Source: Clostridia bacterium (GTDB lineage: Bacteria > Bacillota > Clostridia > Christensenellales > Maliibacteriaceae). From it: DNA of 64,000 bases. Within the stretch, counting starts at the first letter, position 1. Each line of letters opens with the position of its first letter. The translations under genes and the position numbers were made by a program. This document shows positions 35,758 to 64,000 of this stretch, in pieces. Under the pieces are notes generated by a model that was not told the DNA's origin, searched no databases, and saw nothing but the letters and a program-made list of their open reading frames with translations. The stretch covers positions 1 to 64,000 of the forward strand of contig JAFRLQ010000143.1 of NCBI GenBank assembly GCA_017431145.1, written 5' to 3'.

Positions 35758-36750
35758 CTATACCTCCGAGGTGCCTTCCTGCATCTCCTGAATCAGGACG
35801 GCAACCGTCTCTTTCAGCTCATCTTTTCCGTTGATCACCAAGTCTTCCTCTTTTCTGCCTGCCAAAGGAAGATGGTAATACTCATAAATACCTGTCTCCT
35901 CGTTCCGTCTTGCAATCACACGCTGACGCATGATCGAATAGACAGAAAAACCGAATCTGTACTGCAGGTTGGTTGCGAGATCCTCCATATCCTCCTGTGT
36001 ATCGATCTGCATATCATCATATATATTCAGGATCACGGCGTCCGCCTCAACTGCCTGAGAAAAGATGCCGAGATACTCTCCGTAAGGTTCTTTCGGATCA
36101 TCCGTTCTGAAAAAGACGCCTCCGGGAACAGACAGGATGATCACGTCCGGCTTTTCCTTCTGATAAACACACCAGACATACTTGTTCAGCGTTCTGATCT
36201 TTTCGCCGTATCCGATTGTACCGGAATCAAGAAACGGCGGAACCGTATACATCCCGAACAATGCTCCGAGCGGATTGCTGCAAAGATCCGTCACCTTGTA
36301 TCCTGCTTTTTCAAACTCCTCAGAAACAGTTAAATGCGTCTCGAATTTGCCGCAGGAACATCCTGCGCTCACGATCATCACGACCGGCACAGGGATCGGA
36401 TAACGCTTGTCCACCATTCCGCTGTATTCATCGACGGGCAGTTCTTTTTTCAGGGGCTCATAATTCAACCTGTCTGTTTCATCTGTTATCCGTCTCAGAA
36501 CCGGAATTCCGCGTTCTCTCGTGATCCCCGAGATCCTGCGGATCTCTTCTTCCCCTTCCGGGAGTGTGTCCGGAAGAATCACGAGTCCTTCTGCACCCAC
36601 AGAATCGGAAAGATCTATTCTCCTGCTCTCAGGGATCCTGACCCGGTTTTCCGGAAAGGAATCCGCGCCAATGATCTGAAGGTCGCGGAAACCGTCATGT
36701 ACGAGGATCACTTCCATATCATCCGTGTAGGGAAAAAGAACTGTTTTCAT
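35758..36750 (-). CDS. Peptide maturation system protein 2 (TIGR04066-like)
   Basis: 330 residues, homologous to 25605-26657. The P-loop-like motif here is V-S-A-G-C-S-C-G-K-F-E, followed by C-S-N-P-L-G-A-L-F-G-M-Y and S-V-P-G-G-V-F-F. Several Cys residues cluster in and near the loop. The N-terminal third is a separate alpha/beta unit. The conserved CGKF, S-N-x-L-G-A-L and P-G-G-V-F sites probably form an active or nucleotide-binding site. Overlaps the maturase stop by 4 nt (ATGA). Function unknown; it may assist the radical SAM reaction or act on the peptide. Confidence 0.78.
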   Translation of the reverse strand: MKTVLFPYTDDMEVILVHDGFRDLQIIGADSFPENRVRIPESRRIDLSDSVGAEGLVILPDTLPEGEEEIRRISGITRERGIPVLRRITDETDRLNYEPLKKELPVDEYSGMVDKRYPIPVPVVMIVSAGCSCGKFETHLTVSEEFEKAGYKVTDLCSNPLGALFGMYTVPPFLDSGTIGYGEKIRTLNKYVWCVYQKEKPDVIILSVPGGVFFRTDDPKEPYGEYLGIFSQAVEADAVILNIYDDMQIDTQEDMEDLATNLQYRFGFSVYSIMRQRVIARRNEETGIYEYYHLPLAGRKEEDLVINGKDELKETVAVLIQEMQEGTSEV

Positions 36751-38177
36751 CGTTTCGCACCATAATCCATCTCATAATCCAGATCGCGCAGGATCGCGAT
36801 CGTCATGAGATAATCCAGAAGCAGTCCTTCCTGCTGTCTGCAGTTGACCATTTTGTCATCCTCTGTAATGGTTTTTCCGCCAAATTTGATGTTCTGCGAA
36901 CAGATCGAGCAGAGGCGCAGTTTCCAGCAATCGATGCACCTGTTTTCCGTGATGATCCCATTGTTGACCAGACGCCGTACTTTTTCCACATCGATCCCGT
37001 CTCGCAGGTTTCCGATCCTGAAATAATCATAAAGCTCACTGACGTTCTGACAGGGATACAGGTCTCCGTTCGTCGTCACGAACAGCCTCGCACTTCCCGC
37101 CACGCACGGTCCATTGTGATGCATGCACGAAGTCATTTGTTCTCTGCCCTGCATTTGTTCATAGGTCGTGTAAAGATTCGAAAGCGCACGTTCCGCCATT
37201 GGGCTCACTGCGCTCCACGGGAGTTTATTTCCAAGCGCAAGATAGAATTTCAGATATTCAAAGCGCCTGAGCGACCAGAACCGCTCATGCGCCTCAGGAT
37301 CATCTCCCAACGCATCCGCAACGTCATTGAACATGACGTGATGATCGCTCAGCACTTCATCTGTCCGGAATGTCTCCATCATGCAGGACAGGTCTGACTG
37401 CGGCGTCATTACAGCATTAAACATGATCGTTTTCACATCTTCCGGATACAATTCCCTGATCCTTCTGATATTGTTCATGATCACGTCAAAACTTCCCGTT
37501 CCATCCACAAATCGCCTGTTCCGATCATGCTCCGTCTTCCCACCGTCAAGGCTGATCAGGATCTGAAAGCCCTGCTCATTCAAATACGCAAACGTTTCCG
37601 GATCAAGGAGCGTTCCGTTGGTCGTAATATGAAAAGCAATCTTCTTTCCCTTCACGTGATCCTTCACATACTGCACGCATCGTTTGATCAGACCCAGTGC
37701 AAGAAGAGGTTCTCCCCCGTAGAAACCGACTGTCACGCGGGAAGCGTCAGTGCTGTGTTCCAGATAATAATCCAGCGCTTCCTTCGCCGTTTCCCATGTC
37801 ACTTTCTGCACGGAATGCGTTCTCTGATGCGGATAAGCTCCGGAATAAATGCAGTATCCGCATCTCAGATTGCATTGCTGCGTGACCTGAAGAATCAGGT
37901 ACTGAATCCGGTTCTGCAGATAGTATTCAAGATAAGGAACCTCAGGGTGCTCGATTCTCGTAACACAGTTTTCCTGAAGATATCCCATCTGCTGATACTT
38001 CTCCAGATTCTTAACGATCCCCTCATTCTTCAGCGCGGCATTCTCATTCGCACTCAATCGTGAAAACTGCGCATATTCTTCCGCGTCCTTCAGTGTGATC
38101 ACTGTTCCCGTGCTTCGATCATACAGATAAAACCGCCCATATGCATCAAACAGTCTGAATACATACTTTTTGATCAG
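36747..38177 (-). CDS. Radical SAM/SPASM peptide maturase 2 (non-ATG start)
   Basis: About 476 residues. Its N-terminus must begin near 38177 since codons from there read L-I-K-K-Y-V-F-R-L-F-D-A-Y-G, matching M-K-K-Y-V-F-K-P-F-R-T-Y-G-G of maturase 1. The only codons available are CTG (38177) or ATC (38174), as a TGA lies directly upstream and AGAGGTGA is the ribosome site. The radical SAM motif is C-N-L-R-C-G-Y-C (Cys about 102, 106, 109), with G-F-Y-G-G-E-P-L-L. The SPASM region has G-P-C-V-A-G, L-Y-P-C-Q-N and C-I-D-C-W-K-L-R-L-C-S-I-C. If translation used GTG 38102 it would lose 25 conserved residues. Confidence 0.88.
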   Translation of the reverse strand: MIKKYVFRLFDAYGRFYLYDRSTGTVITLKDAEEYAQFSRLSANENAALKNEGIVKNLEKYQQMGYLQENCVTRIEHPEVPYLEYYLQNRIQYLILQVTQQCNLRCGYCIYSGAYPHQRTHSVQKVTWETAKEALDYYLEHSTDASRVTVGFYGGEPLLALGLIKRCVQYVKDHVKGKKIAFHITTNGTLLDPETFAYLNEQGFQILISLDGGKTEHDRNRRFVDGTGSFDVIMNNIRRIRELYPEDVKTIMFNAVMTPQSDLSCMMETFRTDEVLSDHHVMFNDVADALGDDPEAHERFWSLRRFEYLKFYLALGNKLPWSAVSPMAERALSNLYTTYEQMQGREQMTSCMHHNGPCVAGSARLFVTTNGDLYPCQNVSELYDYFRIGNLRDGIDVEKVRRLVNNGIITENRCIDCWKLRLCSICSQNIKFGGKTITEDDKMVNCRQQEGLLLDYLMTIAILRDLDYEMDYGAKR

Positions 38178-41405: not shown

Positions 41406-42350
41406 TCAGAACGGCAAATCCTTATACTGATCGATGTTTTCTTTCGTAACAAGAATCCCCTTCAGCAGATATGTCCCAAAATCTTCTTTTCCCTCTTTAT
41501 ACCGTTTTGTCATGATCTGTGCTGCTTTTTCTCCAAAGGAATACGGATCATAAACGATAACGCATAAAACATCACCATTTTCAACGTGAATCGGAGAATC
41601 AAAATATGAAATTGTTCCTGCAATTTGAGGTTTCTCACCGTCTGCATTTATCAGTTGCGAGTCGATGATATACTCTGTCGACATTTCAGCTGTAAACCAA
41701 ACCCCGCATATATCCTTGTTCTGGTCCATCGCCGATTGATAATCATCACTCACATGATAATATGTATCGATATGATCCATATCATACTCTTCTGCAACAG
41801 CAATATCCGGATAATTAACTAGACAGTCATGTGCTCCTTTAACCATCTCATCTGTATTTCCCAAACGTATATTGAACATGAGAACGCTTCCCATTCCATC
41901 CATTTCTTCAGCAAGTGCTTCCATCGTTCTGAAGCCGGCATCATAATTATCTAGTCCGATCAAACAGACCTGCTCGTCAAACCCGGTCGTATTTACATTC
42001 TCCCCAACCAGCACAACATAGATTCCGGCATCCAAAAGCTGTTCAATATGAGGGATGCTATCCGCTCCTTTGGCAGGAGAGAAAAAAACGCACTGATAGC
42101 CTTTGTCAATTACCTGTATGATATTATTTGCTTCCTGTTCAAACGAACTTGCAGAATCATACACGTCTAACGTAAACCCGTCAATGTTCTCCTCAATACC
42201 CTTGACGACGCTTTGCCAATATGGATTTCTCATTTCTCTGACAATGTATGCAGCATTATTCTGGGCATCCTTTTTCCTGCAGCCTGATGTATTTAAAGCG
42301 AGGACAACAGCAAGCAAGAGCAGAAGAATTGAACATTTTCTGTGTTTCAT
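41406..42350 (-). CDS. Orphan periplasmic-binding-protein-like lipoprotein 2
   Basis: 314 residues. Lipobox N-T-S-G-C near residue 24, then the type I binding-protein fold: A-Y-I-V-R-E-M-R-N-P-Y-W opening, V-F-F-S-P-A-K-G-A-D, V-V-L-V-G-E-N, and a hinge-type two-lobe order. The opening motif is shared with the three paralogues here. AT-rich coding sequence. Directly before the exporter gene on the minus strand, with no CUT-type sugar transporter partner anywhere in the window. Likely extracytoplasmic ligand binding, perhaps of the peptide product. Confidence 0.82.
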   Translation of the reverse strand: MKHRKCSILLLLLAVVLALNTSGCRKKDAQNNAAYIVREMRNPYWQSVVKGIEENIDGFTLDVYDSASSFEQEANNIIQVIDKGYQCVFFSPAKGADSIPHIEQLLDAGIYVVLVGENVNTTGFDEQVCLIGLDNYDAGFRTMEALAEEMDGMGSVLMFNIRLGNTDEMVKGAHDCLVNYPDIAVAEEYDMDHIDTYYHVSDDYQSAMDQNKDICGVWFTAEMSTEYIIDSQLINADGEKPQIAGTISYFDSPIHVENGDVLCVIVYDPYSFGEKAAQIMTKRYKEGKEDFGTYLLKGILVTKENIDQYKDLPF

Positions 42351-42860: not shown

Positions 42861-43790
42861 TCAATATGAAAGATCTGAATAATCCTCAATATTATCTCTT
42901 GTAACCAGTATGCCCGGAATGAGAATTGTTGCCCCTTTCTCCACTGTATCTTCCTCGATTTGTTTCATCAGTTCTCCAGCAGCTTTTCCAAAAGCGGATG
43001 GGTCTTCTGCGATTGACGCTAAAGGGCAACCTCTTTTCAGTTCATTTGGAGTATTTGGATAAGAACGCCCTTCTGAAACCAGCACTTTTTCTTCAAGGCC
43101 GTTACTTATTATGTAATTGACAATACCCTCGCCCATAAGTCCGTTTACACACCATATACCTTGAATACCCGGTTTTTCTTCCATTGTGCTTTGAAATTGT
43201 TCCAAAGCGTCATTGCTATTTGAAATCTTCTGCGTGAATACATCCACAACAGTCACTCCCGGGTGCTCATCGAGTGCCGCCTGAACCCCTTCCGTCATCT
43301 GCTCAGTGTTTTCCAGATTCATGACCATTATCTCAGTTTTTTCCGGCAAAGCTTCAAGCAATACCGTCATTGACTGATAGCCGTTTGTGAATCTGTCTGT
43401 CTGAACCTGATAGGCTTCCTCGCATCCGTTGACAATGGAATCCACAAGCACGACAGTTACCCCATCTGAAATCAACATCTGTACGTTTTCTGTGCTCTCT
43501 GTTTGACTGACAGCTGATACGAATACTCTTTGATAACCTTCTGCCATGACTTTGTTTACATTATTTGTTTCGATTTCAATATCACCTGTTGAATCAAACA
43601 CTATTAATTCTTTTCCTTCCGGAAGTTCTTCCTTGATCGCATTTACAACCGCTTCCCAGTATGGGTTTCTGCAATCCCGGACGATATAAGCCCAGTTCTC
43701 ATTCTTTTTTGCATTCGCATCACAGCCGAAAAGCGATATGATAAGACACAACAAAAGAGCCAAACAGACCAACCGTTTTCTTTGAACCAT
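42861..43790 (-). CDS. Orphan periplasmic-binding-protein-like lipoprotein 3
   Basis: 309 residues. Lipobox S-L-F-G-C near residue 22, followed by A-Y-I-V-R-D-C-R-N-P-Y-W, V-F-V-S-A-V-S-Q, V-V-L-V-D-S-I and the same two-lobe organisation as paralogue 2. ATG 43790 is used rather than the codon just before. It is 13-17 nt downstream of paralogue 4, in the same transcript. Ligand unknown. Confidence 0.82.
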   Translation of the reverse strand: MVQRKRLVCLALLLCLIISLFGCDANAKKNENWAYIVRDCRNPYWEAVVNAIKEELPEGKELIVFDSTGDIEIETNNVNKVMAEGYQRVFVSAVSQTESTENVQMLISDGVTVVLVDSIVNGCEEAYQVQTDRFTNGYQSMTVLLEALPEKTEIMVMNLENTEQMTEGVQAALDEHPGVTVVDVFTQKISNSNDALEQFQSTMEEKPGIQGIWCVNGLMGEGIVNYIISNGLEEKVLVSEGRSYPNTPNELKRGCPLASIAEDPSAFGKAAGELMKQIEEDTVEKGATILIPGILVTRDNIEDYSDLSY

Positions 43791-43806
43791 CATTTCAACC
43801 CACCTT

Positions 43807-52188: not shown

Positions 52189-52241
52189 ACAGTATCAAAA
52201 TGATCCCACGAGTCAGACGCTTGGGATCATTTTGATACTGT
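52189..52241. terminator. Large inverted repeat after blaR1
   Basis: A perfect 20-bp stem (52189-52208 with 52222-52241, 13-nt loop) 54 nt beyond the blaR1 stop. It could end transcription from the regulator pair before it enters the island, or mark the island boundary; on the plus strand TTTTGTTGG follows. Confidence 0.75.
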
Positions 52242-52294: not shown

Positions 52295-53977
52295 TCAAAA
52301 CTGAATATGGTATAATGCATACTTTATCTGATCATCGGTAAATCCATCCAGTTCCAATGTCTGTTCGATATATGTCTCTGTATTAACACCGCATTCCATA
52401 TACCTCTCAGCAGTTTCCAGCGCCATCTTATTCCAGTCACAGTCACATTCCTGAAGCGCATACTGTATTTGTTCATCGGTAAAACCATACGCTCTCATTG
52501 TTGTGGTAATGGCTTCCGGTGTAAGCCAGCCGCCTGTTTCTTTATACTGCTCGACAAACCGCACTGCCTGTTCATCAAAATCAAAACCATTCTGATCGAC
52601 AGCCCAGTATGCGTCCTCCCTTTTAACACCTGCCATTCGCAGCGTTTCCACAAGTTCTTCATAAGAATATGGCCAGTAGTCAAAAAGGACGCCTGCTCTT
52701 TTCAATGCAGATGCTTTATCTGTGTTCGCTTCTCCATCTCCTGGTCTGAAATCGGCATTACAAATCTCCATCGTAATGACACGCACATCGTTTGTCGGGT
52801 TGTCCGTTCTTATGCCCACTCTGTACCAGATTTGTTTATCAAGAGCAAAACTCGTTTTCTCATTTGCATTTACTGCATCTTCATGCATTTCCTTTTCTTT
52901 CTCATTGATCGATTCTTCCAGAACAATCGACAGTTCTTCCGTGCCGCTTGAAGACTGTATGCTTACTCTTTTCCCCAAAGGACTGATCTCTTCTGACGCA
53001 TACCAGACTCCTTCCGGCATATTTGCCGGGATCTCGATGCTGATACTACGGCTGCCGGTCTTCGGCACTGTGAGAAAACAGCCTGCCATCATCACACAAA
53101 TCAGTAACGAGAGCACACTTACGGATATTCCCTTCTTTTTATATGCAATAATCCGTTTAACCCGTCTTCCGATATTGCTTTCGCCAAACATAACGCCTAA
53201 CCTCACTTTCTTATGATTCCATTTATTCTTTCCGTATTGAAGCAGTATATGCGCATAGCGTTTTCTGTCGTCATAGCTCATATGGCGGATCACACGCTCA
53301 TCGCATACGTTCTCTATGTCGCGGCTGAACAGGATCCAGGAGACCCAGACGAAAGGATTGAACCAATGAAGACAGAGAATCAGATAACCTGCGATCTTTG
53401 CAATGTGGTCACCATGCTTCCGGTGCATGCGTTCATGCTTCAGAACAAATCTCATCTCTTCTTCTTTCAGATCAGAAGGAAGATAAATCTTGGGTCTGAT
53501 CACGCCGAACAGAAACGGCGTATCGATCCCGTCGCAAAGATAAATGCCGTCCTTCAGCGGTTTTGATACACGCACCATACGCTTCACCCGCAGATACTGA
53601 ACGACCGCAAAAGCCAGAAAGACCAGACATCCTGCCAGCCACAGCATCGTCACGATCTTCATCCCGTTCAAACCCGAAATACGGATATTCGGATCCGCAT
53701 GCAGATATGGTTCTTTCAGATAGGTTTCTGCACCTGCAACCTGACTTTGCAGGACACCTGTTTCCCCGATCCCTGCTGTTCCGTTATTCCCATTCATCAC
53801 GGGAACAAGTGAGAACCTGAACGGTATTCTTACGGGAATCAGCAATGCAGCAGCAAGAAGAAGCCACAGGACCATATTGACCCATTTTGGAGCGAAGCGC
53901 AGGATCTCCCGGAACAGAAAGACCGCCAGCATGAACCAAACCGAGTTTATGCTCATGTACAGTACGCTGAAAAACAT
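52295..53977 (-). CDS. BlaR1/MecR1-type M56 antirepressor metalloprotease with C-terminal Ltp-like repeats
   Basis: 560 residues. N-terminal helices, then the M56 zinc site H-E-R-M-H near residue 195 and L-C-L-H-W-F-N-P-F-V-W-V typical of BlaR1. A further helix near 290 precedes an extracytoplasmic part. This part is not a penicillin-binding domain. After a beta-rich stretch it has repeated units: Y-S-Y-E-E-L-V-E-T-L, then I-T-T-T-M-R-A-Y-G-F-T-D-E-Q-I-Q-Y-A-L and T-Y-I-E-Q-T-L-E-L-D-G-F-T-D-D-Q-I-K-Y-A-L, like the Ltp lipoprotein repeat. It presumably senses a cell-surface signal and cuts BlaI. Downstream of blaI by 15 nt. Confidence 0.85.
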   Translation of the reverse strand: MFFSVLYMSINSVWFMLAVFLFREILRFAPKWVNMVLWLLLAAALLIPVRIPFRFSLVPVMNGNNGTAGIGETGVLQSQVAGAETYLKEPYLHADPNIRISGLNGMKIVTMLWLAGCLVFLAFAVVQYLRVKRMVRVSKPLKDGIYLCDGIDTPFLFGVIRPKIYLPSDLKEEEMRFVLKHERMHRKHGDHIAKIAGYLILCLHWFNPFVWVSWILFSRDIENVCDERVIRHMSYDDRKRYAHILLQYGKNKWNHKKVRLGVMFGESNIGRRVKRIIAYKKKGISVSVLSLLICVMMAGCFLTVPKTGSRSISIEIPANMPEGVWYASEEISPLGKRVSIQSSSGTEELSIVLEESINEKEKEMHEDAVNANEKTSFALDKQIWYRVGIRTDNPTNDVRVITMEICNADFRPGDGEANTDKASALKRAGVLFDYWPYSYEELVETLRMAGVKREDAYWAVDQNGFDFDEQAVRFVEQYKETGGWLTPEAITTTMRAYGFTDEQIQYALQECDCDWNKMALETAERYMECGVNTETYIEQTLELDGFTDDQIKYALYHIQF

Positions 53978-53992
53978 AGTCAGCACTCCGTC

Positions 53993-54352
53993 TCACTCCT
54001 TTGCTTGATCGATCATCTTCTGAAGCGCTTCCGCTTCCTCCTGTGTCAATCCTTTTCCTCCCGTAAATGCCGCGATGAAAGCCGGAAGCGATCCGTTGAA
54101 GGTCTCTTCAACAAACTGCCTGCTCTGTTTCGCATAATATTCCTCCCTGCTGATACAGGACGTCACGATACGGTTTCTTTTCTGGAACAGCCCCTTTTCG
54201 CACAGGCGGGTAATGACCGTATGCGTCGTTGTCAGTTTCCATTCAAATTCCTTTTCTGCCATTTTTACGAGTTCCGTTGTCGAGATCGGTTCGTTCTGCC
54301 AGATCATATCCGCAAACTGACTTTCGACGATTCCCATTTTTGTGTCTGCCAT
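53993..54352 (-). CDS. BlaI/MecI/CopY family transcriptional repressor
   Basis: 119 residues. Winged helix (E-S-Q-F-A-D-M-I-W, T-T-H-T-V-I-T-R-L-C-E-K-G-L-F) followed by a short dimer helix, normal for BlaI. The cleavage-region residues expected for BlaR1-type proteolysis lie after about residue 75. It should bind the two operators found immediately upstream and repress itself and blaR1. ATG 54352 with AAAGGA upstream is used. Usual targets are beta-lactamase or cell-wall genes; here no beta-lactamase is nearby. Confidence 0.92.
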   Translation of the reverse strand: MADTKMGIVESQFADMIWQNEPISTTELVKMAEKEFEWKLTTTHTVITRLCEKGLFQKRNRIVTSCISREEYYAKQSRQFVEETFNGSLPAFIAAFTGGKGLTQEEAEALQKMIDQAKE

Positions 54353-54370
54353 ATTGGTATCCTTTCGCAC

Positions 54371-54425
54371 ATACTATTGATTGTAGTATTTTCTTCATAC
54401 TACAATTCGTAGTATTATATGTCAA
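54371..54425 (-). promoter_or_regulatory. blaI promoter with two BlaI operators
   Basis: TTGACA (54425-54420), 17 nt and TAGTAT (54402-54397) on the minus strand form the promoter. ATACTAC-N5-GTAGTAT (54397-54415) covers it, and ATACTA-N7-TAGTAT (54371-54389) lies just downstream, both close to the TACTACA / TGTAGTA pattern of BlaI sites. Confidence 0.88.
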
Positions 54426-54572
54426 TACCTTTTGCAAAAATATGGAAACTTTTCTCTCATCAATCCTTCAGGCTTGTTCGGTATTACATTATGTTGTATT
54501 TCGGAGCTGGCGCTTTCGTTGTATAATGACATAAAGAAACACACCCCGATTCGAAAACAAAGGAGTGATCAT

Positions 54573-55367
54573 ATGTATTGCCCAAACTGCGGAAGACAGC
54601 TCCCTGATACCGCGCGGTTCTGCGATGTCTGCGGCTTCCGGATCCCTCAGGCGGCACCCTCTGCGCCTGTGTCCGCGGAGCCATTTCGAGCAGAGCCTGC
54701 AAAGGATCCGGAAAAAGAAACGAAGGCTCCGAAGAAAAGAAGCCCCGTGCTCGGGATCTTTCTGATCCTCTGCGCTGTCCTGTATTTCACCGCCCGGGTG
54801 CTCTATTTTGAGGCCGCTATGGAATTCAGACTGCCGTTCCGGGTCATCTTTACAGGCCGGGGATTCTTCTTCATGGATTTTCTTCCCGTAATGTTCCTTC
54901 CCGCGCTCGGCATGCTGCTGATCGGGCTGTACGGTGTCATCCAGTATCCGAAACGGAAGTATCCTTCGCTTGCCGCAATCGGCGCGCTGCTCTATGTCGC
55001 GGAGCCGTTCGGACAGATCTCCAGACGGTTCTTCGCCGCTTATCAGCCGTACCGTTTCATGTCCTGGCAGATCCCGGCACTTCTAATTCTTTTTCTGCTC
55101 CTTCTGATGGCGCTCGACTGCTTCCTCTACAGAAGGCCGGTCGTCCCCGCCATTCTCACCTGCGCGCTGATGCTTCCGCTGCCCATCTGGGCGTGGCTGT
55201 CGTATAATCATGTCCCGCTATATTCCCTGACTTCCTTCTTCCGTTTCCGCGCTCTTCCGATCATGATGCTCGGTGCAGCAGGCGGCATCCGTCTGATCTT
55301 CTGGACGCTTGCGCTGGTCATGATGATCCTTTCCGTGAACGACCGGAAAAAGAGAAACCGTCTGTGA
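54573..55367 (+). CDS. Zinc-ribbon membrane protein
   Basis: 264 residues. The N-terminus is a zinc ribbon: M-Y-C-P-N-C-G and F-C-D-V-C-G (two C-x2-C pairs). A P/K/E-rich linker (about 30-55) leads to six or so hydrophobic helices. Zinc-ribbon proteins of this plan are common and uncharacterised. ATG 54573 follows AAAGGAGTG; TATAAT lies at 54522-54527 with a weak -35. Divergent from blaI, with the operator region about 160 bases away. Confidence 0.8.
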   Translation: MYCPNCGRQLPDTARFCDVCGFRIPQAAPSAPVSAEPFRAEPAKDPEKETKAPKKRSPVLGIFLILCAVLYFTARVLYFEAAMEFRLPFRVIFTGRGFFFMDFLPVMFLPALGMLLIGLYGVIQYPKRKYPSLAAIGALLYVAEPFGQISRRFFAAYQPYRFMSWQIPALLILFLLLLMALDCFLYRRPVVPAILTCALMLPLPIWAWLSYNHVPLYSLTSFFRFRALPIMMLGAAGGIRLIFWTLALVMMILSVNDRKKRNRL

Positions 55368-57306: not shown

Positions 57307-57334
57307 TTTAAATGAAATTATTATGGTTTATAAT
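57307..57334 (+). promoter_or_regulatory. Promoter of the CnaB gene pair
   Basis: TTTAAA (57307-57312), 16 nt and TATAAT (57329-57334). Since the ATG at 57323 lies inside it, the start of the next gene must be downstream. Confidence 0.6.
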
Positions 57335-57382
57335 AAAAAGGCAATCTTTACGATATGTATCAAAAGAAAGGACAAACGGAAA

Positions 57383-58447
57383 TTGAAAAGAAGAATCTTA
57401 GGATTCGTCATCTGCCTTGCCGTTTTTCTGATGGTCGGCAGTGCTGTCATCTATGCCGCAACAGGCAGTTTTGTGATCCACAAAGTCGACCAGCACGGTG
57501 ACCCCGTCAAGGGCGCCGAATTTGAGATCTATGGAAAACCTGTTCTGACGACAGATGATACGACACGGATCACCGTTACCAAACAATGGCTTGACGGAGA
57601 GAACGCATATGAACTTAGGCCTGAAGTTGCAGCCTTCGCCGGCTCCCTGCATCTGCTGGCGGACGGGCAGGAAGTACAGGGCGCCGAACCGGAAATCGAG
57701 GGAATCGACGGACAGTACTGGCAGATCACTTATACCGGTCTTCCCAAAACAAACAGCAACGGAAAAGAGATCGCTTACACTGTATCCGAAGATGCGATCG
57801 AACATTACAAGACGGAAGGTTCCCCCGCCGCGGATTCCGGCACCATCACAAACACGCTGGTACAGGACGTCACATTCTATAAGATATGGAATGTCGGCGA
57901 ATACACCAGACGGACCGGAGCCAGCTTTGAGCCGATAGAAAACATGAAATGGATCCTGAACGAAGACGGTCTTTCCAGATACGCGGGTATACTTGAACTG
58001 TTCCGGACGACAGATACGCAAGAGGATTGGAAGAATCTGATGCAGCCCGACTTCGAGAACATCGAAGCGTTCACTTCGGCTGCCTCTCCGGTCATTGAGG
58101 TCTGCTCCGGGTTTCCGATCTATGCCCCGAACCGATATGCAAGAGACTGTTCGGATGCAATGGCAATCTGCTCGATCACCTATAAGGATCTGCCCAGATA
58201 CAACAGCGACAATGAGGAAGTCCTGTACATCGTAAGCGAGGAACGGGGCATAGAACGCGGTTTGTTTATATGGACTGTTGACGGCAGGGAAAAGTATTTC
58301 AATTCTTCTGCATGCGGTAAACCGTTCGATCCGAAAAATCTTACAGGATACACCTTTGAACCGATATCGGGCTGTCCTGTTACAATCGAAAACGGTGTGA
58401 TCATGAACAGCGATATAGCGATTCCGACGGGACCGATTTACTCATAA
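57383..58447 (+). CDS. Secreted CnaB/SpaA-type surface protein 1
   Basis: About 354 residues. A basic start K-R-R-I-L and a signal helix (about 5-28) precede a first CnaB-like strand set (F-V-I-H-K-V-D-Q-H-G-D-P-V-K-G-A-E-F-E-I). A second, clear CnaB domain follows (I-T-V-T-K-Q-W-L-D with G-T-I-T-N-T at its end). The rest is less familiar, with two Cys pairs. Lys, Glu and Asn needed for isopeptide bonds are visible in the CnaB units. No LPxTG signal. TTG 57383 is used since the upstream ATG lies within the promoter. 13 nt before protein 2. Confidence 0.72.
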   Translation: MKRRILGFVICLAVFLMVGSAVIYAATGSFVIHKVDQHGDPVKGAEFEIYGKPVLTTDDTTRITVTKQWLDGENAYELRPEVAAFAGSLHLLADGQEVQGAEPEIEGIDGQYWQITYTGLPKTNSNGKEIAYTVSEDAIEHYKTEGSPAADSGTITNTLVQDVTFYKIWNVGEYTRRTGASFEPIENMKWILNEDGLSRYAGILELFRTTDTQEDWKNLMQPDFENIEAFTSAASPVIEVCSGFPIYAPNRYARDCSDAMAICSITYKDLPRYNSDNEEVLYIVSEERGIERGLFIWTVDGREKYFNSSACGKPFDPKNLTGYTFEPISGCPVTIENGVIMNSDIAIPTGPIYS

Positions 58448-58460
58448 GGAGGAAAAGACG

Positions 58461-58925
58461 ATGATCAGAAAAGCAACTATTATAATTGCATCGCTTGTTC
58501 TTTGCTGCGTGATCCTGACTTCCGGCACGGTAAAGGCGGAAGGAGACACGATCTTTACGCTGACCTATCCCGACGGAACGGTCGTGACGACGGATGACGA
58601 GGAAGAGGCACAGCGCCTTGCAGACGAATGGAAACTTCTTTATACCGGCACAACGGACGATAAAGGAGAGATCACGCTGGAAGGTTGGGCACAGGAAGGC
58701 CAGATCCTGATCCGAGAGACTGAGGTCCCGTCCGGATACAAGGCGGAAACGACAGAAACGACGGCAGACCTGAAGGACGGCGAAGTAACGATCGTCAATC
58801 AGAAGATCGACGTGCCTTCGACGGGAGACACGATGAAATGGCTCCCCTGGGCTGTTGTAGGCTGTGCGGCGCTTATTGCGGTCATATGCATCATTGTGAT
58901 CAGGAAAAAAAGAACCATTGAATGA
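58461..58925 (+). CDS. CnaB/SpaA-type surface protein 2 with sortase-like sorting signal
   Basis: 154 residues. Signal peptide to about 24, one SpaA/CnaB-like domain (I-F-T-L-T-Y-P-D-G-T to V-T-I-V-N-Q-K), then V-P-S-T-G-D, a hydrophobic helix and a K-K-K-R tail, the layout of a sortase substrate with a variant of L-P-x-T-G. TAAGGAGG overlaps the stop of protein 1, so both are cotranslated. It may anchor protein 1 or act as its pilin partner. No sortase gene was found in the window. Confidence 0.78.
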   Translation: MIRKATIIIASLVLCCVILTSGTVKAEGDTIFTLTYPDGTVVTTDDEEEAQRLADEWKLLYTGTTDDKGEITLEGWAQEGQILIRETEVPSGYKAETTETTADLKDGEVTIVNQKIDVPSTGDTMKWLPWAVVGCAALIAVICIIVIRKKRTIE

Positions 58926-61592: not shown

Positions 61593-64000
61593 TCATTCCA
61601 TTGAGATGACCTTGTATCCCTCATTCTCAACGGCTTTTTTCATTTCCTCAAACGGCACTTCTTTTTCAAGGATAATGTCAGCTTTTCCCTCTGTGTGGCT
61701 TGCTTTCGCTTCCTTGACACCGTCCAGGCTTTCCAGCGCGTTCTTCACCGCCCGTTCGCAGTGCTCACACATCATTCCCTCGATCCGGAGCGTTTTTTCA
61801 CTCTGTGACGTTTTGTTTTCGGATCCGAGGAACGTATAGCCTTCCTCTTCCACGGCCTTTTTCATCTCCTCCTCCGGGACTTCCTTTGTCAGTATGACGA
61901 CGGCTTTTCCGTCCGCGTGGCTCGCCTTCGCCTCTTTGACGCCGTCCAGTTTTTCAAGCGCGTTCTTCACCGCCCGTTCGCAGTGCTCGCACATCATTCC
62001 TTCGATCCGGATGACGGTCTCCTGCGTATCGGACACCTCCGTGCGTACAGGTTCAACCGCGGCAGGCTCCTCCCTCTCGACCTGCTTCAGCGCGACGGGA
62101 TGCTTTTTCTTTCTGTCCCGTTTCGTACTGTGCATATCAAAGAAGTTGAGACGCAGCGCGTTCGATACCACAAAGAAACTGGAGAGGCTCATGGCCGCCG
62201 CGCCGAACATGGGATTGAGCTGCCAGCCGAATACATTCACATAGGCGCCCGCGGCAAGCGGGATGCCGAGCACGTTGTAGAAGAACGCCCAGAACAGGTT
62301 CTGATGGATATTCCGCAGCGTCGCGCGGCTGAGCCGTACCGCGGCGGGAACATCGCTCAGTCTGTTCTTCATCAGGACGACGTCCGCAGCGTCCACCGCC
62401 ACATCCGCGCCTGCCCCGATCGCGATCCCCATATCCGCCCGCGTCAGCGCGGGGGCGTCGTTGATCCCGTCGCCTACCATCGCAACTTTACCCTGCTTTT
62501 TCAGTTCGCGGATCACGTTTTCCTTTCCGTCGGGCAGAACGCCCGCGATGACCTGATCCACGCCGGCCTGGCGTCCGATCGCTTTTGCCGTCCGCTCGTT
62601 GTCCCCGGTCAGCATGACGACCTGGATCCCCATATCCTGCAGCTCGCGCACCGCCTGCGGACTGTCTTCCTTGATGACGTCCGCCACGGCGATCATGCCG
62701 AGCAGTTTTTCGTTGCGGGTGAACAGAAGCGGCGTCTTTCCCTCTTCCGCGAGTTTCTCCGCTTTTTCTTTCATTTCAGCGGATACATCGCATCTTCCGC
62801 TGATAAACGCATAGCTTCCTCCCGTCAGGACAGCGCCGTTCAGTTTTGCGGTGAGTCCGTTACCTGCCAGCGCTTCAAAATCCGTAACTTCCTGTGAAAC
62901 GACTTTCTGCTCGTCCCCAAAGGCGATCACAGCCTTCGCCAGCGGGTGCTCGCTCTTTGCCTCGAGACTGTACGCAGCACTCAGAAGTTCCGCGTTCGAC
63001 ACATCCTGTGCCGGAATGAGATCCGTGACTTTGGGTTCGCCTGCGGTGATCGTTCCGGTCTTGTCCAGCGCGACGATATCCACTTTTCCTGTCTCCTCCA
63101 GAGACACCGCCGTCTTGAACAGAACACCGTTTTTGGCGCCTTTTCCGTTGCCCACCATGATCGCGACCGGCGTCGCGAGACCGAGCGCGCAGGGACAGCT
63201 GATCACCAGCACGGCTACCGCACGCGTCAGCGCGGTCCCGACGGGTTCTTTCAGGATCATCCAGATAAGGAATGTCACGACGGAGATCCCGATCACTGCA
63301 GGCACGAACACGCCTGACACCCTGTCCGCTACTTTTGCGATCGGCGCTTTGGTCGCCGCCGCGTCGCTGACCATCTGAATGATCTTTGACAGCGTCGTGT
63401 CCTCACCGACACGCGTAGCTTCGCAGCGGATAAATCCGGACTGATTCGTCGTCGCTGCGGAGACGAGATCTCCCGCCTCCTTGTCGACAGGGATACTCTC
63501 TCCGGTCAGCGCCGCCTCGTTGACTGCACTCGAACCATCCACGACGATGCCGTCCACCGGGATATTCTCTCCCGGCCGCACGACGAAAACATCGCCTTTT
63601 TTAACCTGTTCGATCGGCACTTCCTTTTCCGCACCGTCCACAAGGATCGTGGCGGTCTTGGGAGAAAGCTTCATCAGGCTTTTCAGCGCGTCGGTCGTCT
63701 TTCCCTTTGAACGCGCCTCCAGCATCTTCCCCACCGTGATCAGCGTCAGGATCATGGCCGCGCCTTCAAAATAGAACTCATGCGCGTAGTGCATCACCAT
63801 CTGTGCGTCGCCGTACAGCTGCGCACGGCTCATGGCAAGAAGGGCCCACACGCTGTACAGGAAGGACGCTGCGGATCCCAGTGCCACCAGCGTATCCATA
63901 TTCGGCGCAAGATGCAGCAGGCTTTTGAAGCCGCTGATAAAGAACCGCTGGTTGATCACCATCACGATGCCCGCAAGCAGCATCTGAATGATCCCGATCA
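61593..64000 (-). CDS. copA: Copper-type heavy-metal P-ATPase, N-terminus outside the window
   Basis: At least 801 residues in the window; the reading frame runs through the right edge. Signature C-P-C-A-L-G motif in the membrane, D-K-T-G-T-I-T phosphorylation site, S-E-H-P-L-A-K with the His of the HP motif, and G-D-G-I-N-D-A-P-A. Two heavy-metal-associated domains (each M-M-C-E-H-C) follow the last helix, at the C-terminal end, about 75 residues apart and nearly identical, where related enzymes carry them at the N-terminus. A CPC motif and M-x-C-x2-C binding sites suggest Cu(I) export. Whether an N-terminal domain also exists cannot be seen. Confidence 0.93.
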   Translation of the reverse strand, partial: IGIIQMLLAGIVMVINQRFFISGFKSLLHLAPNMDTLVALGSAASFLYSVWALLAMSRAQLYGDAQMVMHYAHEFYFEGAAMILTLITVGKMLEARSKGKTTDALKSLMKLSPKTATILVDGAEKEVPIEQVKKGDVFVVRPGENIPVDGIVVDGSSAVNEAALTGESIPVDKEAGDLVSAATTNQSGFIRCEATRVGEDTTLSKIIQMVSDAAATKAPIAKVADRVSGVFVPAVIGISVVTFLIWMILKEPVGTALTRAVAVLVISCPCALGLATPVAIMVGNGKGAKNGVLFKTAVSLEETGKVDIVALDKTGTITAGEPKVTDLIPAQDVSNAELLSAAYSLEAKSEHPLAKAVIAFGDEQKVVSQEVTDFEALAGNGLTAKLNGAVLTGGSYAFISGRCDVSAEMKEKAEKLAEEGKTPLLFTRNEKLLGMIAVADVIKEDSPQAVRELQDMGIQVVMLTGDNERTAKAIGRQAGVDQVIAGVLPDGKENVIRELKKQGKVAMVGDGINDAPALTRADMGIAIGAGADVAVDAADVVLMKNRLSDVPAAVRLSRATLRNIHQNLFWAFFYNVLGIPLAAGAYVNVFGWQLNPMFGAAAMSLSSFFVVSNALRLNFFDMHSTKRDRKKKHPVALKQVEREEPAAVEPVRTEVSDTQETVIRIEGMMCEHCERAVKNALEKLDGVKEAKASHADGKAVVILTKEVPEEEMKKAVEEEGYTFLGSENKTSQSEKTLRIEGMMCEHCERAVKNALESLDGVKEAKASHTEGKADIILEKEVPFEEMKKAVENEGYKVISME

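What the first reader, a model, noticed from the sequence alone, without database searches (positions are those of the whole stretch)
52295..54425. BlaR1-type antirepressor fused to Ltp-like repeats, with a canonical BlaI/operator pair beside the island
The sensor part of BlaR1 is replaced by a region with repeats of G-F-T-D-x-Q-I-x-Y-A-L, like the Ltp superinfection-exclusion lipoprotein. It lies at the edge of the peptide island, so it could sense a cell-surface or peptide signal.
Basis: partly seen in the sequence, partly recalled or inferred. Interest (0 to 1): 0.6.

Follow-up and report, generated by a model that had tools for sequence, protein, structure and literature searches.

The report
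BlaR1-type receptor with phage-exclusion repeats
A bacterial membrane receptor of the kind that senses penicillin carries, in place of its penicillin-binding part, a domain otherwise known from proteins that phages use to block rival phages; its DNA switch appears to control little beyond itself, and no second example turned up in the genomes searched.

Summary
Window 52298-53986 (-) encodes an intact M56/BlaR1 antirepressor (PF05569, 6.5e-45; HEXXH...E kept) followed by a low-confidence beta linker and three Ltp repeats (PF07553 2.8e-9; phrog_4980 'superinfection exclusion' 2.4e-23; predicted fold like Ltp, PDB 4EQQ). blaI (53993-54352, -) precedes it. Two 19-bp operators sit on the blaI promoter (54397-54415, 0 mismatches; 54371-54389, 1 mismatch).

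Replacing the penicillin sensor is ordinary for this family: all 47 related M56 loci checked also hold a blaI, and their C-termini carry DUF4825, VanW, BspA repeats and others. The Ltp module is not ordinary: it was fused to M56 nowhere else, neither in order, class and phylum samples (about 400 genomes each) nor in 151 further Ltp reading frames from genome and viral contigs.

The link to the peptide island is not supported. The dyad ACTACN3-7GTAGT occurs once in the 2.38-Mb assembly, at blaI. The only extra candidate nearby is a weak site before the divergent zinc-ribbon membrane gene (54573-55367, +).

Best reading: an autoregulated BlaI-M56 receptor with an extracellular Ltp domain and unknown ligand. 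Phage-entry sensing is the most novel reading not excluded.

The parts
53993..54352 (-). blaI-type repressor, 119 aa from ATG 54352 (frame open to GTG 54370); no C-terminal CxC copper motif
   Evidence: PF03965 6.8e-22; only PF03965 match over cut-off in the assembly; sequence read
52298..53986 (-). M56/BlaR1-type antirepressor with C-terminal Ltp repeats, 563 aa
   Evidence: PF05569 6.5e-45 and PF07553 2.8e-9; only PF05569 match in the assembly
53153..53965 (-). M56 metalloprotease/membrane part; HEXXH at residues 184-188 and Glu225 invariant among 48 relatives
53072..53128 (-). last transmembrane helix (residues 287-305), ending near a lipobox-like MAGC
   Evidence: AlphaFold2 helix 287-305; lipobox scan
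52718..53071 (-). linker, residues 306-423, predicted beta-rich with low confidence, no family match
52298..52717 (-). three Ltp repeats, residues 424-563, net charge -15
   Evidence: phrog_4980 2.4e-23; model pLDDT mostly above 90 with three three-helix repeats; Foldseek to 4EQQ TM 0.83-0.85 of the target; charge
54397..54415 (.). operator 1, overlapping spacer and -10 hexamer of the blaI promoter
54371..54389 (.). operator 2, between promoter and blaI start codon
54397..54425 (-). blaI promoter-like site TTGACA-17-TAGTAT, 10 of 12 matches
   Evidence: the number of such sites in the region is at chance, so this rests on position
54481..54499 (.). possible third, degenerate operator upstream of the divergent gene
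   Evidence: 3 mismatches; reached in 0.3% of shuffles of the 157-bp stretch; 34 sites this weak in the assembly
54573..55367 (+). divergent zinc-ribbon membrane protein, candidate second target
   Evidence: PF13240 1.2e-8; shared intergenic region
52190..52241 (.). perfect 20-bp hairpin after the antirepressor stop codon, possible transcription boundary (no T-run)
   Evidence: fold z-score -3.9; not called terminator-like; unique in the window

Best explanation
An autoregulated BlaI/BlaR1-type receptor pair whose extracellular sensor is an Ltp-repeat domain. At rest the BlaI dimer binds two operators over its own promoter and keeps the blaI-antirepressor operon low. A ligand outside the membrane contacts the Ltp repeats; the signal passes through the last transmembrane helix, activates the cytoplasmic M56 zinc protease, BlaI is removed and the operon is expressed, perhaps with the divergent zinc-ribbon membrane gene. 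Shown here: domain content, retained catalytic residues, operon order, operators and their rarity in the genome. Inferred from S. aureus BlaR1: topology, BlaI cleavage, signal transfer. Unknown: the ligand and any output beyond the operon.
For: Domains. H184, E185, H188 and E225 invariant in 48 M56 proteins. A blaI-like frame in each of 47 M56 loci from relatives, nearly always directly upstream, with varied C-terminal modules. Operators over the blaI promoter and almost nowhere else. Confident Ltp-like model. Precedent for topology, the HEXXH...E site and signalling: PMC9834060.
Against: No ligand, expression or binding data. Operator spacing differs by one base from the published TACANNTGTA core (PMC7253601). 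The assembly is about 91% complete, so a target in missing sequence is possible, and BlaI may accept sites that a dyad search does not find. The dyad is not shared with relatives, so comparison gives no support for it. The linker model is low confidence.
Confidence: 0.72

Rival explanations
1. Phage-entry sensor and effector in one protein: the Ltp repeats meet an incoming phage's tape measure protein, block DNA entry as Ltp does, and activate M56 so that more of the same protein is made.
For: Best family match of the repeats is a superinfection-exclusion family; Ltp repeats act on the tape measure protein, with negative charges important (PMC3952083), and these repeats carry net charge -15; the only strong operators are on its own promoter, so the operon itself would be the output.
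Against: Many chromosomal Ltp proteins have no shown phage role; most other Ltp domains compared are as acidic; no phage gene was recognised among the neighbours scanned, though the left 30 kb was not scanned by family; no defence-family match.
Confidence: 0.09
2. Envelope-stress or antibiotic receptor: the Ltp domain binds a cell-wall component, peptide or other envelope ligand, with no connection to phages. This is a more specific form of the best explanation.
For: Relatives carry VanW, G5, BspA-type and DUF4825 modules, which would fit envelope or matrix ligands; the known members sense cell-wall antibiotics (PMC9834060).
Against: No direct evidence for any such ligand of Ltp repeats.
Confidence: 0.3
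3. Regulator of, or sensor for, the neighbouring radical-SAM peptide island.
For: Adjacent and on the same strand; the island has a CcpM-like maturase and permeases.
Against: No operator in or before the island; about 470 bp with a strong hairpin between them.
Confidence: 0.06
4. CopY-type copper repressor system, since a copper-type ATPase lies at 61593-63983.
For: Weak TIGR02698 CopY match (38.5 bits) and a heavy-metal ATPase in the window.
Against: Score far below the curated 122 bits; the repressor ends in QKMIDQAKE without CxC motifs; no operator near the ATPase.
Confidence: 0.02
5. Assembly or recombination artefact joining an M56 gene to an Ltp gene.
For: Singleton in every search, from an assembly of 148 contigs.
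Against: One open frame of 563 codons with a linker between the parts; GC falls smoothly over M56, linker and Ltp: 0.47, 0.46, 0.43.
Confidence: 0.06

Closest known systems
S. aureus / B. licheniformis BlaI-BlaR1 (and MecI-MecR1)
   Same: Repressor and M56 antirepressor in one unit, HEXXH...E site, dyad operators over the promoter, sensor placed after the last transmembrane helix
   Different: No beta-lactam-binding sensor; Ltp repeats instead; no beta-lactamase or PBP target found by operator; operator spacing one base longer
Ltp, superinfection-exclusion lipoprotein of phage TP-J34 (PDB 4EQQ)
   Same: Tandem acidic helical repeats tethered to the membrane (outside here by inference)
   Different: Three repeats fused to a polytopic protease rather than a small lipid-anchored protein; no exclusion shown
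Clostridial BlaI-M56 pairs with other C-terminal modules (DUF4825, VanW, BspA repeats)
   Same: Gene order, M56 domain at about 30% identity, replaced sensor
   Different: Ltp module found only here; upstream regions of 45 of 46 relatives show no significant match to this dyad
RecX
   Same: Similar helical repeat fold
   Different: Cytosolic RecA regulator; Ltp and phage families match better by sequence

Membership tests
M56 / BlaR1-type antirepressor | PF05569 over its cut-off with HEXXH and downstream Glu | tested here: met
M56 / BlaR1-type antirepressor | Cognate BlaI gene in the same operon | tested here: met
M56 / BlaR1-type antirepressor | Signal-dependent inactivation of BlaI | not testable with these tools
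   needs experiment
BlaR1 beta-lactam sensor proper | C-terminal penicillin-binding/class D beta-lactamase-like domain | tested here: not met
   no such Pfam match; NCBIfam blaR1_generic 86.6 bits against a cut-off of 400, aligned only to residue 302
Ltp / PF07553 | PF07553 repeats over cut-off | tested here: met
   37.4 bits against 23.2; phrog_4980 2.4e-23
Ltp / PF07553 | Ltp-like fold | tested here: met
   predicted model; Foldseek to 4EQQ, probability 1.00, TM 0.83-0.85 of the target
Ltp superinfection-exclusion protein | Extracellular placement by lipid anchor or transmembrane helix | tested here: inconclusive
   follows the last transmembrane helix, lipobox-like MAGC there; side of the membrane not shown
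Ltp superinfection-exclusion protein | Blocks phage DNA entry | not testable with these tools
   needs experiment
BlaI/MecI operator | Dyad with TACA/TGTA core over the target promoter | tested here: inconclusive
   two dyads with TACTAC/GTAGTA arms over the promoter, but the exact TACANNTGTA core is absent because the spacing is one base longer
CopY copper repressor | C-terminal CxC motifs and curated score | tested here: not met

The most novel reading that the evidence does not exclude
A self-inducing phage-entry receptor: the Ltp domain is sensor and shield at once. Contact with an incoming phage activates the M56 protease, BlaI is cleaved, and the cell makes more of the same protein, whose own promoter is the only strong target of the repressor.
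Probability: 0.09. Interest if true: 0.88.

Novelty: new variant of a known kind. Interest (0 to 1): 0.5.

Why it matters
The BlaI-M56 pairs appear here as a general receptor chassis with exchangeable extracellular parts, most of unknown ligand. A member whose extracellular part comes from a family with a known molecular target (phage tape measure proteins) gives a concrete hypothesis for what a non-beta-lactam member senses, and the near-absence of other operators makes its output easy to measure.

Tried and rejected
The first genome-contig scan with the full protein found no relative. A combined alignment (A3) placed Ltp fragments on the M56 domain and was discarded. A4 had no stretch conserved enough to scan with; A5 was used instead. 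Searching relatives' blaI upstream regions for this operator found a significant site in 1 of 46, so the operator could not be supported by comparison. RecX identity was considered because of NCBIfam and Foldseek matches and set aside because Pfam and PHROG matches favour Ltp and the domain follows a transmembrane helix. The CopY reading and control of the peptide island were rejected on motif and operator evidence. Some weak Ltp profile matches in relatives look like RecX or chance (L042-L045). The count of blaI beside M56 rests on single-query searches; in a few loci the match is weak (down to 7e-5).

Full report
What is there. On the minus strand, blaI (ATG 54352 to 53993) is followed at once by a 563-codon gene (GTG 53986 to 52298). 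The repressor matches PF03965 at 6.8e-22; the second protein matches PF05569 at 6.5e-45 over residues 8-278 and PF07553 at 2.8e-9 over its C-terminus. Neither PF03965 nor PF05569 has another match over its cut-off in the assembly.

The Ltp part. The C-terminal 140 residues match phrog_4980 and phrog_15667, both annotated superinfection exclusion, at 2.4e-23 and 1.1e-13. Aligned with Ltp repeats from other genomes they form three repeats. Repeats 2 and 3 are alike beyond all 2000 shuffles; repeat 1 alone is not. The predicted structure has three three-helix repeats with pLDDT mostly above 90. It matches the solved Ltp (4EQQ, TM 0.83-0.85 by target length) and RecX (TM 0.54-0.72 by target length), and phage 'host cell surface-exposed lipoproteins' among viral models. 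Between it and the last transmembrane helix lies a beta-rich linker of low confidence.

The receptor part. H184, E185, H188 and E225 are invariant in an alignment of 48 M56 proteins. All 47 M56 loci collected from relatives contain a blaI-like frame, nearly always directly upstream. Pfam on these 48 proteins finds DUF4825 in 10, VanW in 4, BspA-type repeats in 2, single cases of RCC1, beta-helix, G5 and DUF5301, and Ltp only in the window protein. So a swapped sensor is normal in this group, and Ltp is the rare choice.

Rarity of the fusion. PF07553 in 396 genomes of the order: the window was the only M56 fusion; other frames are lipoproteins, membrane-anchored proteins or RecX-like. The Ltp part against 391 genomes of the class: none fused. 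The full protein and PF07553 against 398 genomes of the phylum: no listed M56 match extends into Ltp, and no other Ltp frame exceeds 353 aa. Of 151 Ltp frames in 146 further loci, from a scan of 84,980 species genomes (best 80 kept) and of viral contigs (66), none has M56 and no blaI was found within the loci. The samples overlap and the best-80 limit applies, so 'rare' is shown and 'unique' is not. No paper found combines the two domains; subscription literature and InterPro were not searched.

The switch. Two 19-bp dyads lie on the blaI promoter: one covers the spacer and -10 hexamer, the other lies between promoter and start codon. The pattern ACTACN3-7GTAGT occurs once in 2.38 Mb against 30 for the reversed control; with up to two mismatches the 19-bp pattern gives these two sites and one unrelated site. 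A third, three-mismatch site at 54481-54499 lies upstream of the divergent zinc-ribbon gene; 0.3% of shuffles of that stretch do as well, but 34 sites that weak exist in the assembly, so it is only a candidate. Relatives' blaI upstream regions do not carry this dyad, so their repressors probably read other sites.

The island. The genes to the left include a CcpM-like radical SAM maturase (TIGR04068, 478.8 bits, just under its cut-off of 500), a TIGR04066-like protein, a subtilase, ABC and FtsX permeases and Peripla_BP_4 lipoproteins. No operator was found there, and a 20-bp hairpin separates it from the antirepressor gene. The hairpin lacks a T-run and was not called a terminator.

How it probably works. 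By homology with S. aureus BlaR1 (PMC9834060) the Ltp domain should lie outside the membrane and the protease inside. Ligand contact would activate the protease, BlaI would be lost, and the operon would rise. The ligand is unknown. Ltp of TP-J34 acts on phage tape measure proteins and its negative charges matter (PMC3952083). The window repeats are acidic (net -15), as are most Ltp domains compared, so charge does not discriminate. Phage sensing is therefore kept as the most novel reading, at 0.09.

A side point. The last transmembrane helix ends in MAGC, a lipobox-like motif, found at this place in 7 of 48 proteins against 3 matches in all of their N-terminal parts before HEXXH. S. aureus signal peptidase cleaves BlaR1 shortly after this helix. 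Cleavage by lipoprotein signal peptidase would release an Ltp lipoprotein; this is speculation.

Verdict. A real and well-delimited feature: a known kind of receptor pair with a rare extracellular module and an unusually narrow predicted regulon. The mechanism follows the family; the ligand, which is the interesting part, cannot be settled by sequence.

Noticed in passing
window 30139-51828: Radical-SAM peptide island: CcpM-like maturase (36747-38102), TIGR04066-like protein, QhpE-like subtilase, ABC exporter, with several FtsX-type permeases and at least two Peripla_BP_4 lipoproteins (41406-42350, 42861-43793), an unusual mix.
   Followed up: partly
window 53072-53128 and relatives L020, L022, L023, L024, L025, L088: Lipobox-like motif at the end of the last transmembrane helix of M56 proteins, 7 of 48, suggesting that some sensor domains may be released as lipoproteins.
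   Followed up: partly
L061, L072, L076, L078, L080, L036: Recurring architecture in other genomes: zinc ribbon, a transmembrane helix, then Ltp repeats, without M56; the gene divergent from blaI here is also a zinc-ribbon membrane protein.
   Followed up: no
L091, L103 (upstream of blaI): Dyad of the form AGACT...AGTCT upstream of blaI, perhaps the operator type of these BlaI relatives.
   Followed up: no
window 57323-58925: Two surface-protein-like genes; the second ends in VPSTGD plus a membrane helix and basic tail, like a sortase substrate (NF053819 below cut-off).
   Followed up: no
window 52190-52241: Perfect 20-bp hairpin, unique in the window, without a T-run.
   Followed up: partly
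window 61593-63983: Copper-type P-type ATPase whose own C-terminus carries heavy-metal-binding (CopZ-like) domains; no BlaI-type operator near it.
   Followed up: no
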